Shown: in pieces, positions 52,813 to 60,625 of the stretch
How positions within the stretch are numbered: the stretch's first letter is position 1
Layout: each line of letters begins with the position of its first letter
Assembly: GCF_001693815.1 (NCBI RefSeq)
Contig: NZ_MBQD01000024.1
Coordinates: forward strand, 154,189 to 218,188
Origin: Tessaracoccus lapidicaptus
GTDB lineage: Bacteria > Actinomycetota > Actinomycetes > Propionibacteriales > Propionibacteriaceae
Length of the DNA stretch: 64,000 bases
Direction of reading: 5' to 3'
Notes under the pieces: model-generated
Database searches by the model: none
Told to the model about the DNA's origin: nothing
Seen by the model: the letters and a program-made list of their open reading frames with translations, nothing else
Position numbers and translations under genes: made by a program

Positions 52813-52898
52813 GATGCCCTCCAGGGAACCCATTCCACGATACTCCTGGACTGACATTCACACTTGATCCCGTGTGTGGGGAGCAGCGGCCCCGCCGG

Positions 52899-53512
52899 TT
52901 CCTGAGGTCGCGCCTATCCGTTCGCTGAGGTCGCGCTCGCCCGTTCGCTGAGGTCGCGCCTATCCGTTCGCTGAGGTCGCGCCCGGTGCGCAGCACCCGG
53001 GCGAGTCTCGAAGCCGACGCCTTCCCGTTCGCTGAGGTCGCGCCCGACGGCGGAGCCGTCCGGGTGAGTCTCGAAGCCGACGCCGCAGGCGGCGATCTCC
53101 CAACCCCATCCTCTGAGGGTGTGGGGAGCCGTGACCCGACGCTCGGGCGGCCCTTGACGCCGGGTGCCCTGTTCGGCTGACCGACTGGCTGGGGTTGAGC
53201 AGTCGAGGCCGCCCGAGCGTCGGGTCCCGTCTCCCCCCACTGGTTGCACCCGTGGCGTGGCTGGGTCCGGTGGCGGCCCGGCGGGGCGGCCCTGGCACAG
53301 GTTCGTCTAGGCGGGACGCCAGCTGGGTGACCCTCGGGTTGGGCATCACTGCGCATTGCCGCCCCAACGTCCCACCCCCTCGCGGGAATCCCCAGCGACG
53401 CTGAGGTCGCGACCCCCCGCTCGCTGAGGTCGCGCCACCCGTTCGCTTATGTCGCGCCCGACGGCGGAGCCGTCCGGGCGAGTCTCGAAGCCGACGCCGT
53501 AGGCGTCGATCC
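52899..53512 (-). repeat. Left inverted arm flanking the HNH gene
   Basis: Built of the dispersed repeat in reverse orientation: several CGTTCGCTGAGGTCGCG units (52918 onward), hairpin cores at 52965-53095 and 53440-53512, and between them about 340 bases that match the right arm inverted. Example: GCAATGCGCAGTGATGCCCA is found on its minus strand near 53340-53370 and on the plus strand near 55283. No convincing gene lies in this stretch (52813-53525). Confidence 0.75.
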
Positions 53513-53525
53513 CCCTGGGTGCGGG

Positions 53526-54974: not shown

Positions 54975-55028
54975 GTGAACTATTCTTGCCGGGGCCACTG
55001 ACAATTTCTGATCGGCGGTTCGGTCACG

Positions 55029-55615
55029 GATCGACGCCTGCGGCGTCGGCTTCGAGACTCGCCCGGACGGCTCCGCCGTCGGGCGCGACCTCAGCGAACG
55101 ATGCCGGCTCAACCTCAGGAGCGGTGGTCAGGAGATCGACGCCTACGGCGTCGGCTTCGAGACTCGCCCGGACGGCTCCGCCGTCGGGCGCGACCTCAGC
55201 GAACGAGTGGTCGCGACCTCAGCGAACGGGGTCGGCGCGACCTCAGCCAGCGGGTCCGCGAGGGGGTGGGACGGTGGGGCGGCAATGCGCAGTGATGCCC
55301 AACCCGACGATCACCCAACTGGCGTCCCGCCCAGACCAACCCGACCCAAGGCCGCCCCACCGGCACGCCCCCGAACCCGGCCACGCCACCGCCCGAACCA
55401 GTGTGGGGAGACGGGAACCGACGCTCGGGCGGCCTCGGCTACTCAACCCCAGCCAGTCGGTCACCTGAACAGACCACCCGTCCACAAGTGCCGCCCGAGC
55501 GTCGGGTCACGGCTCCCCACACCAGCAGCGGACGGGGTTGAGGGATCGACGCCTACGGCGTCGGCTTCGAGACTCGCCCGGGTGCTCCGCCGTCGGGCGC
55601 GACCTCAGCGAACGG
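55029..55615 (+). repeat. Right inverted arm flanking the HNH gene
   Basis: Forward-oriented counterpart of the left arm: hairpin cores at 55029-55100, 55134-55205 and 55544-55615, GCGACCTCAGCGAACG units near 55190-55250, and between them about 300 bases that pair with the left arm (for example GACGCTCGGGCGGCC near 55420 and its inverse near 53200). Bases 54975-55844 contain no convincing gene. Confidence 0.75.
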
Positions 55616-55649
55616 GTGGGCGCGACCTCAGCGAGCGGGCCGCCGACAC

Positions 55650-55809
55650 CAGCACGACACGCCGTCGAACTTCGCCATGAACGCCCTCAACCGCCCCCGA
55701 GCCCGAGTTTGGCTGCTATCCGTGCTGCGCTCGGGGGATCGACGCCTGCGGCGTCGGCTTCGAGACTCGCCCGGACGGCTCCGCCGTCGGGCGCGACCTC
55801 AGCGAACGG
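55650..55809 (+). repeat. 159-bp-type composite repeat, copy 4
   Basis: Begins CAGCACGACACGCCGTCGAA like the three copies near 12.6-13.1 kb, contains CCGTGCTG and the GACGCCTGCGGCGTC hairpin core, and closes with GCGACCTCAGCGAACGG. It is followed by two more short units and abuts the end of the 291-residue gene. Confidence 0.8.
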
Positions 55810-55844
55810 GGGGCGCGACCTCAGCGAACGGTGCAGGTGCGACC

Positions 55845-56720
55845 TCAATTAGCGGGGGCGGGCGGGGCGTCGAAGAAGCGGGCGTCGCGCGCGTATGCCC
55901 GAAAGAACGCGAAGATGAACCCCATCCGCTCCTCGTAGCACTCCCACGTCGTCGCCTCGCTCCCCACCACCTCCCCAGCGACCGCATGGTCGAACCGCGC
56001 CGCGAGCTCACACAGCTCCACCTGCCGCAGGTGCTCCAGGACTGCCGGGAATCGCGCGCCGCCCAGATACGACGGCGCGGGCACCTCACGGCACACATCG
56101 AGGGGCCCGTCGGGGGTGACCACGTCCACGAACCTGGTCACGATCCGCCCGAACAGCCCACCCAACGGCATCGCGTCGTCGATCAGCGCGTCCGCGATCC
56201 ACTGCTCGTGCGCCGCCACCCGCACGTTGCCCAACAGCATCAGCTCCGCGACCGCCCGGTCTGCCTCCTCGTCCAGTTCCTCGGCCGCCGCGAGGGCCCG
56301 CAACTCGAGCGCGGACTGGTAGGCCGCCATCGCCGCGCCGAGGTCGGGGGCGTCGTCGAACAGCGGGTCCGCGACCGCCACCTCCAGCGCCGTCCGGGTG
56401 GGCCTACCTGCCCGGGACACCTCGTCGAGCCACCGCACGAATCGGGGTGCGACGTCGGCGATGATCGTCCGGTTGCCCTCCGCGACCGCACCCGAGGCGC
56501 CGGGGTCCAGCCCGAGCGGCAGCCCTTCCCTGCGGATGACGCGGCCTGCCGAGGCGCTGGCCCACGCCCCGAACGCCAGCCAGTTGACGTCGCTGCGGCC
56601 CGTGAGGTCCGCGACGGCGAGCGCCAGGTCGCGGTAACAGGCGGTGATGGCGGTGTTGCGGACCACGGGGTCGGCGATCGCGACGACTGCGGCCACGGCC
56701 CGCTGCGACGGATACGACAT
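55845..56720 (-). CDS. Unknown 291-residue protein of the sheath operon
   Basis: Soluble, mostly helical protein without signal peptide. The start is MSYPSQRAVAAVVAIADPVVRN. The segment DVNWLAFGAWASASAGRVIRREG looks like a conserved family core (NW..F..WAS..AG..IR.E), and the middle is rich in Ala/Glu/Asp helices. The C-terminus has TTWECYEERMGFIFAFFRAYARD. I do not recognise the family. It starts 2 bases after the sheath stop, so it is translated with the sheath and ends within dispersed repeats. A structural, assembly or effector role in the sheath system is conceivable but not shown. Confidence 0.75.
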   Translation of the reverse strand: MSYPSQRAVAAVVAIADPVVRNTAITACYRDLALAVADLTGRSDVNWLAFGAWASASAGRVIRREGLPLGLDPGASGAVAEGNRTIIADVAPRFVRWLDEVSRAGRPTRTALEVAVADPLFDDAPDLGAAMAAYQSALELRALAAAEELDEEADRAVAELMLLGNVRVAAHEQWIADALIDDAMPLGGLFGRIVTRFVDVVTPDGPLDVCREVPAPSYLGGARFPAVLEHLRQVELCELAARFDHAVAGEVVGSEATTWECYEERMGFIFAFFRAYARDARFFDAPPAPAN

Positions 56721-56722
56721 GG

Positions 56723-57805
56723 CTACCCCTGGGTCTGGAAGGTCAACCGGTGAACGTCGAACTCGGCCGGCCGCATGGTCGCGAGGTAGATCTCCACCAC
56801 CAGCCGGCCGTCCTGCAGGTCCGCGTGAGTCATCGTCTCGCCGAGCCCGCACCGCGCCCCGTAGGCGTCCTGGGGCCGGTCACCTGGGAACGCTCCGGCC
56901 CGCCACAGCTCGTTGAGGAAGCTCTCTACGAGCTGCTTGACGAGCAGCCAGAGAGGGGCCTCGTTGGGCTCGAACACGACGAACTCCAGGCCCGCGGCCA
57001 GCGAACCGAGCACGTGGTCGGTGAGCCGCCGCATCGGGAGGTAGCGACGGGCTGGCTCCGCGCTGTCGGCCCCTGCGAGCGTCCGCGCGCCCCACACCAG
57101 CCGCCCCCGGCCGGGGAACTCGCGCATCGCATTGACCCCGGCCTGGACCAGCGCCTCGTTGGCGACGTCGTCGAGCGCCTCCGTGAAACCGTCCAACCCG
57201 TGAAGCGAGACACCGGCCGGCGCCTTCCAGAACCCGCGCTCCGCGTCGGTGCGCGCGATCACGCCCGCGACAACGCCCGATGGCGGGACCGCGACCCCGC
57301 CAGTAACGAGCCAGGGATGGTACACCGCCGCGCGCTCCCGGTGTGGGCCGGTCTGGCGTGCGGCCGCGCCCGCGCCGTCGTTGAATGGTCCGGGCGGGAG
57401 GTCGAGGACGAGCACGGCGCGCCAGGACGCGCAGAGGGCGAGGGCGGTGCTCACCTGGAGGTGGTGGTCCGCCGTCAGGCCTGGGACCGCGAGGACCGTG
57501 ATGCCGGAGTCGGCCAGTGCGTGGACCCCTCCTCCCGCGCCCGGGACGAGATGATCCGGGGCAGGCGACGCCGCCCGCACCACCGTCAACCGCGTGCCGC
57601 CGTTGACGAAGAACAGGTCGACGGCGTGTCCGAGGGGCCGCCCGGGGTCCAGGGTGGGGCCGAAGATGGCGTGGTACTCCCCGTCGCTGGTCACGACGAC
57701 CGGGGTGTCAACGGGCCCGGCGTCGCAGGCGCCGACGAAGCCGGTCACGGACGCGGGCAGCGGCCGGATGGAGCGGGCCGCGGGGATCTCCTCGACGTAG
57801 GGCAT
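56723..57805 (-). CDS. Contractile-tail sheath protein, orphan (eCIS/phage type)
   Basis: Protein of 360 residues resembling the sheath of R-type pyocins, Afp/PVC injection systems and myophages. The N-terminus reads MPYVEEIPAARSIRPLPASVTGFVGACDAGPV and is followed by the strand-turn FFVNGGTRLTVVRA, as in Afp-type sheaths. The C-terminal contractile domain reads FVVFEPNEAPLWLLVKQLVESFLNELWRAG and GRLVVEIYLATMRPAEFDVHRLTF. The two ends normally interlock neighbouring subunits, and both are present. No tube, baseplate, spike, tape-measure or AAA gene is found in 64 kb. It starts 4 bases after the lipoprotein stop and 2 bases before the next gene. Confidence 0.88.
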   Translation of the reverse strand: MPYVEEIPAARSIRPLPASVTGFVGACDAGPVDTPVVVTSDGEYHAIFGPTLDPGRPLGHAVDLFFVNGGTRLTVVRAASPAPDHLVPGAGGGVHALADSGITVLAVPGLTADHHLQVSTALALCASWRAVLVLDLPPGPFNDGAGAAARQTGPHRERAAVYHPWLVTGGVAVPPSGVVAGVIARTDAERGFWKAPAGVSLHGLDGFTEALDDVANEALVQAGVNAMREFPGRGRLVWGARTLAGADSAEPARRYLPMRRLTDHVLGSLAAGLEFVVFEPNEAPLWLLVKQLVESFLNELWRAGAFPGDRPQDAYGARCGLGETMTHADLQDGRLVVEIYLATMRPAEFDVHRLTFQTQG

Positions 57806-57809
57806 GCGG

Positions 57810-59171
57810 TCATCCCCCCGGGGTGGGCGACGGCGACTCCGAGCCGGTGCGACCCCGCGCCAACGCGCACTCGTTGTCGGTGAGGGTGGGGGCGGCGGTG
57901 TCCGTGACGACGATCCCGAAGTCGACGTCCTCGCACACGACGCCTGCCAGCGCGCCGGTGGCGGTTCCGCCGACGATCACCGCTGCCCGGCTCGACCCCG
58001 CGATGGTGGCGCCCTCGACCACTGGGGCCGCGGCGCCCTCCACCTGGAGGCCGACCTCCCCGCCGTCGATCCGCAGGTCCAGCAGCGTGGGCCGGGCCGA
58101 CTCCGCGACCGCGATCCCCACCGTGTTGCCCGAGAAGATCCCGCCCGACAGGGAGCCGTCGGAGTCGCCGAGGAAGCACACGCCGCACTCGCCGTTTCCG
58201 ATCAGGTCGACGTCCGTCACGCTGACGCGGTGCGCGCCGGCGACGGCGAGCCCCGCCCAGGCGTTGTCGCGGAGGGTGACGTCGGTGGCCTCGAAGGTGG
58301 TGCGACGCTCCGCTTCGCTGTCGCCGCCGACGAGCATGACCCCGGCTCCGCCGCCCGTGTCGTCCGGGCGCCCGCCGGACACGGTGACGTGCGCGAGCGC
58401 CAGCGTGGCCGCCCCTCCCGCGACGACGCCGGAGCCGGGGACCGCGGGGTCGCGGTTCAGCGTGAGGGAGTCGAGGGTGACGGGCTCCGCGGTCGCGATG
58501 AGGATGGCTGCCTCCGGCGCGGCGGACGTCAGCACGGTGGCCTCCTCACCCTCGCCGAGCAGCGTGACGGAGCTGAGGATGACCAGCGGTTGGGCGAGCG
58601 TGAAGGTCCCCTCGCTGAGCAGGAGCGTCGATCCGGACGGCACCTCCGCGAGTGCGGTGGCCAGGTCCTCGTCGGGGAACACCGCCCGGCGCACGGGCAG
58701 TTCGGGGATCCGGCCGTCGAGTCCCGCGACCAGACGCGCCCGCACCGCCTCCGCCAGCGGTGATTCCGCCCTCACGTCGTCGATGCCGGCGTCGACGTCG
58801 GCGCGCATCTGGGCGGCCGCGCAGCGACGCTCCTCAACGGCGTCGCGGACCTCGGCCAGCGCGTCCTGGATTTCGTCGCCCTCGGCGGGCTGGACCGTGG
58901 CGGTCGGGGTGGCTGAGGGCGTCGCGGTGAGCGTTGGGGTCGGCGACGGGGCGGGAGAGGCGGCGCGATCGTCGTAGGAGTCCACCACCTGCTGGAGGGC
59001 CGCGCCGACGGTGGCCGCGAGATCCTGGCACCGCCGCTCCGGCCATGCGGACGACGACGGAGACTGCGACGGCGAGGGCGACGGGCTGGGCGGGGAGGAC
59101 GGGGCGGAGGTGCAGCCGATCAGGACACACGACGCGAGGATCGACGTCGCCAGTCCCACAACGGCCTTCAT
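57810..59171 (-). CDS. Right-handed beta-helix lipoprotein, first gene of the sheath operon
   Basis: Exported lipoprotein of 453 residues with lipobox LIGC and a Ser/Pro-rich linker. A second Pro/Thr linker lies near residues 70-95 (SPTPTLTATPSATPTATV), after a short helical part (CQDLAATVGAALQQVVDSYDD). From about residue 165 the chain is a pectate-lyase-like parallel beta-helix: LLLSEGTFTLAQPLVILSSVTLLGEG, then turns such as SGVVAGGAATLALAHVTVSGG. No catalytic residue set of pectinases is evident. A surface-binding or adhesive role is inferred. It is leaderless (TAGCGT 6 nt upstream). Its C-terminal 59 residues recur as a fragment at 60212-60391. Confidence 0.83.
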   Translation of the reverse strand: MKAVVGLATSILASCVLIGCTSAPSSPPSPSPSPSQSPSSSAWPERRCQDLAATVGAALQQVVDSYDDRAASPAPSPTPTLTATPSATPTATVQPAEGDEIQDALAEVRDAVEERRCAAAQMRADVDAGIDDVRAESPLAEAVRARLVAGLDGRIPELPVRRAVFPDEDLATALAEVPSGSTLLLSEGTFTLAQPLVILSSVTLLGEGEEATVLTSAAPEAAILIATAEPVTLDSLTLNRDPAVPGSGVVAGGAATLALAHVTVSGGRPDDTGGGAGVMLVGGDSEAERRTTFEATDVTLRDNAWAGLAVAGAHRVSVTDVDLIGNGECGVCFLGDSDGSLSGGIFSGNTVGIAVAESARPTLLDLRIDGGEVGLQVEGAAAPVVEGATIAGSSRAAVIVGGTATGALAGVVCEDVDFGIVVTDTAAPTLTDNECALARGRTGSESPSPTPGG

Positions 59172-59223: not shown

Positions 59224-59796
59224 TCACTTCTTCTTGGGGGGCTTCGTCGGCACCGGCTCTGTCGGCACCGGCTCTGTCGGCTCCGGCTCCGGGTCTGTCG
59301 GCACGGGGTCGGTCGGGTCCGGATCCGTCGGGAGGGGATCGGTCGGCACCGGGTCGGCCGGCACGGGATCCGTCGGGACGGGCTCGGTCACCGTTCCCTC
59401 CGGCGCGGTCCAGCCGTCGGTGCGGATCCGCACGGAGTCGTACGACGCGGTCGCGGACCCCACCACCAAGCCGACCCGGCCATCGGCCAGAGCCGCGCTG
59501 TACGCCATCGACCGGACGAACGATCCGTTCAGCTCCAACGACACCGATGCGCCCTTGATGGTCACGACCATCGTGTAGTCGGCACCCGCGACGAGCACCT
59601 GGCTGACGGTCTGGTCGATGGACCACGAGCCTCGGGTGACGTGCCCGAAGATCACGGTCTGGGTCGTGACGTCGAGAACGATGAACTTGAACTCGTCGAG
59701 GCTGTAGAAGTCGTAGACGAGACCGGCGATGCCGCCCTCGGCGATCCGCAGGCTGAGACCGCCGCCGACGACGAGACCCGCTTCGCCGACGTCACC
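59224..59796 (-). pseudogene. Truncated exoprotein: ConA-like domain with Pro/Thr/Asp repeat tail
   Basis: An open frame of 190 codons without a plausible start. It opens abruptly with VGEAGLVVGGGLSLRIAEGG, then FYSLDEFKFIVLDVTTQTVIFGH and DGRVGLVVGSATASYDSVRIR, which is the shape of the lectin/ConA-like domain repeated in very large adhesin-like exoproteins. A repetitive tail of TDPVP-type units follows and the chain ends KPPKKK. Only the C-terminal end of the original gene seems to remain. A GTG at 59655 could restart translation, but a secretion signal is absent. Confidence 0.6.
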
Positions 59797-60211: not shown

Positions 60212-60391
60212 TCAACCAGCGGGGGTGGGTGAGGGCGACGGGGAGCCGATGCTGCCCCGGGCCGGCGCGCACTGGTTGTCGGTCAGAGTGGGCGCGGCCG
60301 TGTCCGTGACCACGATCGCGTAGTCCACGTCCTTGCACACCACCGACACCAGCTCCCCCGTGGCCGTCCCCCCGACGATCACTGCGGCCCT
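60212..60391 (-). pseudogene. Duplicated C-terminus of the beta-helix lipoprotein
   Basis: Reads RAAVIVGGTATGELVSVVCK, then DVDYAIVVTDTAAPTLTDNQC, and ends SPSPSPTPAG before a stop. It matches the last 59 residues of the lipoprotein at 57810-59171 with about three quarters of positions identical. The rest of the copy is missing: upstream of 60391 the sequence switches to an unrelated domain. Confidence 0.8.
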
Positions 60392-60625
60392 GATGGTGCC
60401 GTCGGGGTGCCCGACGCGGTGAGGGCGCCGTCGGCTGCGGTCCACGACCCGGTCTGCACGTCGTCGACCAGGCCCGGGCCGTCGTCGAAGGACTCGGTCA
60501 CGTCCAGCGTGATCTGCGGCGGCAGGACCGCGACGGACACGCTGTCGAACTTGCCGCGCGCCTGGTTGGAGCCCACGCCGACGAAGCCCTTGTTGAGACC
60601 GACCGCGACGCCGTCGATGATCGCG
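60392..60625 (-). pseudogene. Fragment of a ConA-like exoprotein domain
   Basis: Minus-strand frame reading TAIIDGVAVGLNKGFVGVGS, NQARGKFDSVSVAVLPPQ and ITLDVTESFDDGPGLVDDV. The VGLNKG-VGVGS-ARG-FD-V-V-VLPPQ pattern is the end of the same repeated domain type as at 59224-59796. It is open at both ends and fused to the lipoprotein fragment. Confidence 0.55.

What the first reader, a model, noticed from the sequence alone, without database searches (positions are those of the whole stretch)
55845..59171. Minimal operon with an orphan contractile sheath, a beta-helix lipoprotein and an unknown protein
Three genes with 4- and 2-base gaps encode a surface lipoprotein with a parallel beta-helix, a complete contractile-tail sheath and a soluble protein with an NW..F..WAS..AG..IR.E core. 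Known contractile injection systems need a tube, baseplate, spike, and usually an AAA protein; none is nearby. A sheath without a tube suggests a non-injection use, such as a surface filament, a cell-bound scaffold or a sheath repurposed for adhesion. The sheath keeps both its N-terminal and C-terminal interlocking parts, so it is not an obvious relic.
Basis: partly seen in the sequence, partly recalled or inferred. Interest (0 to 1): 0.85.

Follow-up and report, generated by a model that had tools for sequence, protein, structure and literature searches.

The report
Tubeless sheath from collapsed injection machine
This bacterium carries a single sheath gene from a phage-tail-like injection machine, although searches of its genome found no tube, baseplate-wedge or cap gene; the sheath belongs to a family in which most members are joined to a piece of the machine's ATPase that lacks the ATP-binding motif, and it likely serves a job inside the cell that does not involve injection.

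Summary
In detail: a lipoprotein, a 360-aa contractile sheath and a 291-aa protein lie head to tail (gaps 4 and 2 bases). The genome has one sheath and no detectable tube, gp25 or Pvc16 cap. The trio is not a conserved unit: I found the full order only here; sheath + 291-aa recurs in Tessaracoccus MC1679, and two relatives have the lipoprotein with no sheath beside it.

The sheath belongs to one clade (53 of 93 tree rows) seen in Tessaracoccus/Arachnia, Ornithinimicrobium and Serinicoccus. Of 14 genomes carrying it, 10 lack tube, gp25 and cap; in 4 these lie on other contigs. Forty of 52 members match Pfam AAA: a C-terminal piece of the injection-system ATPase without Walker A. Three carry a cupin instead; the window's protein has neither. 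Selection is purifying (dN/dS 0.24-0.41 in the 27 comparable pairs), yet the N-terminal interlocking arm motif is mostly gone (3 of 53 versus 29 of 35).

Best reading: an injection-system locus collapsed and the sheath was kept as a non-injecting intracellular protein. Function is inferred, not shown.

The parts
57810..59171 (-). Beta-helix lipoprotein, 453 aa, ends 4 bases before the sheath start; not conserved beside the sheath
56723..57805 (-). Orphan contractile sheath, 360 aa (PF04984); member of the lone-sheath clade, without the C-terminal AAA+ piece that most relatives carry
57764..57805 (-). Shortened N-terminal arm of the sheath (residues 1-14, MPYVEEIPAARSIR); the PGV part is missing compared with most other sheaths
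56721..56730 (-). Place where MC1679 carries about 110 more codons (linker + AAA+ piece); here the frame stops and the 291-aa gene follows after 2 bases
   Evidence: DNA compared with L031:
55845..56720 (-). 291-aa all-helical protein, remote relative of DUF2515; follows the sheath here and in Tessaracoccus MC1679

Best explanation
The window encodes a lone sheath protein of a single clade within the contractile-injection-system sheaths, in a genome where no tube, gp25 or cap gene was found; it likely arose when an injection-system locus collapsed, and likely now works as a self-contained, non-injecting protein inside the cell. Shown: the clade, carrier genomes without those other parts, the AAA+ piece without Walker A in most relatives and its absence here, purifying selection on the sheath, loss of the N-terminal arm motif in most members, and a surplus of changed positions in the assembly domain (domain I). 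Inferred: a deletion running from the end of the sheath gene across tube and cap genes into the middle of the AAA+ gene made the original fusion, and this lineage later lost the piece. Inferred: the protein would still self-associate through its remaining domain I and C-terminal arm into rings or short non-contractile polymers, serving as an intracellular scaffold whose C-terminal tail can be swapped (AAA+ remnant, cupin, nothing). The partner or cargo is unknown; the 291-aa protein is the best candidate, in this genus only.
For: One sheath and no PF06841 tube, PF04965 wedge or PF14065 cap in the own genome (3.09 Mb, completeness given as 100); the tube search does find tubes in relatives G022 and G011, added for comparison. 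Of 14 genomes with a clade member, 10 have none of the three; in the other 4 the tube, wedge and cap are on other contigs than the orphan. The clade (52 aligned rows + P0104) is on one branch with SH-aLRT 100, length 0.85. A PF00004 match in 40 of 52 at E up to 1e-3, for P0049 aligned to residues 448-529 of an intact 635-aa eCIS AAA+ of G063 at 61%; Walker A pattern in 0 of 52 tails. Cupin in 3 of 52, one subclade. dN/dS 0.24-0.41 in 27 of 78 pairs (those with pN under 0.25) of 13 coding sequences. N-arm motif 3 of 53 versus 29 of 35; conserved positions lost: N-arm 4 of 5, domain I 23 of 57, domain II 10 of 76. In Serinicoccus G063 the eCIS order sheath, tube, cap, AAA+ on one strand would allow fusion by one deletion. 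P0205 is a second, separate sheath-AAA fusion with a changed Walker A (GGSSTGRT). FV3 gp053 still forms polysheaths after removal of up to 25 N-terminal residues (abstract of PMC6357053).
Against: No function, binding or assembly was shown. Loss of the N-arm and of domain I residues could equally mean that it no longer assembles. The AAA+ piece is looser than the sheath (pN/pS 0.33-0.91 in the AAA-bearing pairs) and frays in Serinicoccus, is absent here, and one of 14 genomes (L044) has a split, frameshifted copy, so slow decay is not excluded. In the three other eCIS-bearing genomes the AAA+ gene lies before the sheath, which does not fit a one-deletion origin. The control clade (Streptomyces) also loses more in domain I than in domain II (5 of 52 versus 0 of 56, p 0.026), and orphans are more distant (38% versus 49% identity to the rest), so part of the domain I surplus is ordinary. 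G011 has a tube but no Pvc16_N match, so absence of the cap marker alone is weak; the gp25 search did not include G022 or G011.
Confidence: 0.42

Rival explanations
1. Slow relic: the gene is what remains of a lost injection-system locus and has no present function; it persists because decay is slow.
For: The AAA+ piece frays in Serinicoccus and is absent here; L044 is frameshifted; patchy distribution, 3 of 36 same-genus genomes; neighbours not conserved.
Against: dN/dS 0.24-0.41 across genera and unbroken frames in 13 of 14 genomes; domain II no less conserved in orphans than in the comparison sheaths, though that set is more diverse; cupin swap at the C-terminus.
Confidence: 0.28
2. Chain terminator: a sheath subunit with a C-terminal but no full N-terminal arm, plus a dead AAA+ piece, would cap or poison the assembly of contractile tails made in the same cell (own or incoming injection systems, contractile phages).
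For: Both halves come from the machine and both lack a part that looks needed to continue (N-arm motif 3 of 53; Walker A 0 of 52 tails). Patchy, unlinked single gene, as accessory genes often are.
Against: 10 of 14 carriers lack the tube, gp25 and cap markers; sheaths in the phage collection are under 60% identical in all 83 records with a match, the ten listed 23-29%; this genome's copy and P0048 have no AAA+ piece and keep YVEE.
Confidence: 0.12
3. Surface scaffold or filament: lipoprotein, sheath and 291-aa protein act together at the cell surface.
For: Tight gene spacing in this genome.
Against: Three-gene order seen only here; lipoprotein without an adjacent sheath in G003 and G019; no signal peptide on the sheath by eye; the AlphaFold model of relative P0049 is a plain sheath fold plus tail.
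Confidence: 0.05
4. The rest of a working injection system is present but scattered or in assembly gaps.
For: The assembly is in 27 contigs.
Against: Three separate marker families absent here and in 9 further carrier genomes; the same tube search finds tubes in 6 of the 18 genomes searched, including G022 and G011.
Confidence: 0.04

Closest known systems
Streptomyces coelicolor cytoplasmic contractile injection system sheath (PDB 8bky, 8bl4, 9gtp, 9gts)
   Same: Best fold match of the P0049 model (Foldseek E 1e-25, TM by target length about 0.8); second and third best sequence matches of the window protein; actinobacterial
   Different: There the sheath is one of many genes with tube, baseplate, cap and AAA+; here it stands alone, with a shortened N-arm
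eCIS AAA+ ATPase (Cis15; Afp15 and Pvc15 are recalled names)
   Same: The C-terminal piece of most clade members; in the example P0049 61% identical over 82 residues to G063's intact protein
   Different: Only a middle piece with pore loop and Walker B; no Walker A, and it stops before the sensor and arginine-finger part (motif names recalled); fused to a sheath; absent in the window protein
P0205, a 587-aa metagenomic sheath-AAA fusion
   Same: Sheath followed by an eCIS-type AAA+ domain with a changed Walker A
   Different: Full N-arm and nearly whole AAA+ core; placed with ordinary sheaths in the tree, so a separate event; one sequence on a short contig
Polysheaths formed by a sheath protein alone (phage FV3 gp053, PMC6357053, abstract)
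   Same: A sheath assembling without tube or other tail proteins
   Different: Recombinant product of a phage protein, not a naturally lone gene

Membership tests
Extracellular/cytoplasmic contractile injection system (eCIS) | Sheath | tested here: met
   PF04984 above cut-off; CIS sheaths are the best structures
Extracellular/cytoplasmic contractile injection system (eCIS) | Inner tube (PF06841) in the genome | tested here: not met
   0 matches in own genome; found in comparison genomes G022, G011
Extracellular/cytoplasmic contractile injection system (eCIS) | Baseplate wedge gp25 (PF04965) | tested here: not met
   0 in own genome; found in 4 of 14 clade genomes
Extracellular/cytoplasmic contractile injection system (eCIS) | Pvc16_N cap (PF14065) | tested here: not met
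   0 in own genome; found in 4 of 14 clade genomes and G022, not in G011
Extracellular/cytoplasmic contractile injection system (eCIS) | AAA+ ATPase of the eCIS kind | tested here: not met
   P0049 (sheath + AAA piece) matches only the sheath in the own genome; separate AAA matches appear in G063, G066, G068, G071 and a broken one in G065
Phage_sheath_1 (PF04984) protein family | Profile score above curated cut-off | tested here: met
   43 bits against 31.4
Contractile sheath, assembly features | N-terminal interlocking arm (PGVYVEE) | tested here: not met
   Window keeps YVEE without PGV; motif in 3 of 53 clade members versus 29 of 35 comparison sheaths
Contractile sheath, assembly features | C-terminal end around PAEF | tested here: met
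   P[AG]E[FY] in 48 of 53 clade members; PAEF or PAEY in 35 of 35 comparison sheaths
Contractile sheath, assembly features | Self-assembly into a helical sheath | not testable with these tools
   needs purified protein
AAA+ ATPase (clade members' tails) | Walker A motif | tested here: not met
   0 of 52 tails
Prophage or phage tail | Close relative in viral records | tested here: not met
   11 stretches matched a pattern, none confirmed; 83 phage records, all under 60% identity, listed ones 23-29%
DUF2515 (291-aa protein) | Profile score above curated cut-off | tested here: not met
   13 bits against 24.3 for the window protein; 31 of 46 members match at E up to 1, best 3.5e-5

The most novel reading that the evidence does not exclude
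A contractile sheath has been domesticated by cells that discarded the rest of the machine: a natural, tubeless sheath protein that builds a non-injecting intracellular structure and displays exchangeable C-terminal modules, born from the collapse of an injection-system operon into a sheath-dead-ATPase fusion, an event that happened at least twice.
Probability: 0.3. Interest if true: 0.8.

Novelty: new variant of a known kind. Interest (0 to 1): 0.6.

Why it matters
Sheath proteins are treated as parts that make sense only around a tube, and a large survey of injection systems discarded candidates lacking tube, baseplate or initiator genes (PMC12210884, passages), so lone sheaths would not be seen. 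A selected, tubeless sheath lineage would show that the sheath fold has a use of its own, and it gives a natural test of which residues serve assembly (domain I, N-arm) and which the fold. The recurring fusion to an ATPase piece without a working Walker A touches the open question of what the eCIS AAA+ protein does (called of unknown function in PMC10020575, passages).
Full report
What is there. On the minus strand lie a 453-aa beta-helix lipoprotein (57810-59171), a 360-aa contractile sheath (56723-57805) and a 291-aa protein (55845-56720), separated by 4 and 2 bases. The sheath scores above the Pfam cut-off and matches solved contractile-injection-system sheaths at both ends of its length.

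Is it an orphan? The own genome (3.09 Mb, 27 contigs, completeness listed as 100) holds one sheath match, and no match to the tube family PF06841, the baseplate wedge PF04965 or the cap family PF14065. The tube search finds tubes in relatives G022 and G011, beside their sheaths; the cap search finds one in G022 but not in G011, so that marker alone is weaker.

Is the trio a unit? No. Of 60 relatives searched, 3 of 36 same-genus genomes (own included) carry a sheath of this kind: this one, G030 and G007. In MC1679 the sheath is followed after 8 bases by the 291-aa homologue, near the same four neighbours (pantothenate genes by eye). In G007 the two are on different contigs. The 291-aa family occurs in 7 of 116 relatives, all of the same genus, and in 3 of 14 genomes with the orphan sheath. 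In G019 a broken lipoprotein abuts the 291-aa gene and no sheath is found. In G003 the lipoprotein is unbroken, about 54 kb from the 291-aa gene and far from the one sheath place of that genome. All three genus members with the orphan sheath also have the 291-aa family, against 4 of the other 33 (hand count, taking the same 36 genomes to lie in both; about 0.005 by chance, relatedness not corrected), so a link between those two within the genus is possible.

The clade. The closest homologues of the sheath form one clade. With 93 rows, 53 (52 aligned rows plus P0104, which I had first put among the others) sit on one branch with SH-aLRT 100 and length 0.85. Fourteen close loci come from Tessaracoccus, Arachnia, Ornithinicoccus, Serinicoccus, Ornithinimicrobium and two MAGs labelled Actinomycetales and Acidobacteria; two further hits, in Paractinoplanes, are remote. 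Their neighbours within the fetched 10 kb (less for L038, L040 and L042) show no shared set across genera beyond the cases named. Of 14 genomes searched (the own genome and 13 of those 14), tube, wedge and cap are each found in the same 4, G063, G066, G068 and G071, and always on other contigs than the orphan. A fifth, G065, has another sheath and a broken AAA stretch but none of the three markers. So 10 of 14 carry the orphan without these parts.

The tail. Forty of 52 aligned members match Pfam AAA at E up to 1e-3, and 3 match a cupin. By motif, 45 of 52 keep the ETEK and/or Walker B signature in the tail. The piece of the example P0049 matches residues 448-529 of the intact 635-aa eCIS ATPase of G063 at 61% identity, starting after Walker A and stopping before the sensor and arginine-finger part (these motif names are recalled). 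No tail holds a Walker A pattern; the only match, in P0079, lies inside the sheath part. In AlphaFold's model of P0049 the sheath part is confident and the tail moderately so (pLDDT 47-86 in blocks of ten), beta-alpha-beta-alpha-beta, after a low-confidence linker. Foldseek puts Streptomyces coelicolor injection-system sheaths first. In this genome the piece is missing: the DNA runs from CAGACCCAG to the stop and into the 291-aa gene, where MC1679 has about 110 further codons. That it was lost, and not never gained, is inferred from its close relatives.

Selection and anatomy. By Nei-Gojobori, the sheath part shows dN/dS 0.24-0.41 in the 27 of 78 pairs with pN under 0.25; the closest pair (L034/L035, dS 0.19) gives 0.33. 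The AAA+ piece is looser (pN/pS 0.33-0.91) and frays in Serinicoccus. Compared with 35 other sheaths, orphans mostly lack the N-terminal PGVYV motif (3 of 53 against 29 of 35), while the PAEF end is mostly kept. Of positions conserved in the other sheaths, orphans lose 4 of 5 in the N-arm, 23 of 57 in the C-terminal part of domain I, and 10 of 76 in domain II (Fisher 9e-5). The Streptomyces control clade loses 0 of 2, 5 of 52 and 0 of 56 (p 0.026) and is closer to the rest (49% against 38% identity), so a milder bias is ordinary. The domain borders are mine, set after the diffocin sheath. Domain I carries sheath assembly in solved relatives (PMC6088184, passages), and its attachment helix contacts the tube (PMC8894135, passages). 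This fits a protein freed from the tube, but could also mean weaker assembly. A phage sheath keeps assembling after removal of up to 25 N-terminal residues (PMC6357053, abstract), so arm loss alone does not exclude polymers.

Origin. In G063 the injection-system order is sheath, tube, cap, AAA+ on one strand within about 7 kb, so one deletion could make the fusion. In G066, G068 and G071 the AAA+ gene lies before the sheath, which does not fit. A separate fusion, P0205 (587 aa, full N-arm, nearly whole AAA+ with Walker A changed to GGSSTGRT), groups with ordinary sheaths, suggesting that such fusions arise repeatedly; it is one metagenomic sequence on a short contig.

What it does. Not shown. 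I commit to a self-contained, non-injecting intracellular scaffold (0.42), with slow relic (0.28) and chain terminator (0.12) as main rivals. The surface-filament idea has little support.

Novelty. The sheath fold is known; the lone, tail-swapping, N-arm-poor clade is a new variant of it. My paper searches listed no description of it by title or abstract, but they cover only an open subset, and one survey excluded incomplete clusters by design (PMC12210884, passages).

Noticed in passing
window 60215-60400 (-): A second copy of the last 62 residues of the lipoprotein (77% identical), upstream of the trio: leftover of a partial duplication.
   Followed up: partly
window 59224-59655 (-): 143-aa open frame with a proline/threonine-rich end that looks like the tail of a larger laminin-G-like protein by eye; no Pfam match.
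   Followed up: no
window 52895-53515 and 55016-55856: Dispersed repeats around GGGCGCGACCTCAGCGAACG (the six commonest 16-base words of this stretch occur 14 to 16 times in the window, both strands together), also in longer 78-90-base copies.
   Followed up: partly
L080 (G003, closed genome) and L083 (G011): Other lone sheaths (516 and 506 aa) outside the orphan clade, with no tube beside them; G003 has no tube family match, while G011 has sheath and tube together on another contig. Lone sheaths may be commoner than one clade.
   Followed up: partly
L039, L040 (Ornithinimicrobium cavernae and a MAG): Sheath with a small cupin domain at its C-terminus in place of the AAA+ piece.
   Followed up: partly
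L044 (Ornithinimicrobium sp. CNJ-824): Orphan sheath split over two overlapping frames: frameshift or sequencing error.
   Followed up: no
window 55845-56720 (-): 291-aa family: confident all-helical model without a clear solved relative, weakly related to DUF2515.
   Followed up: partly
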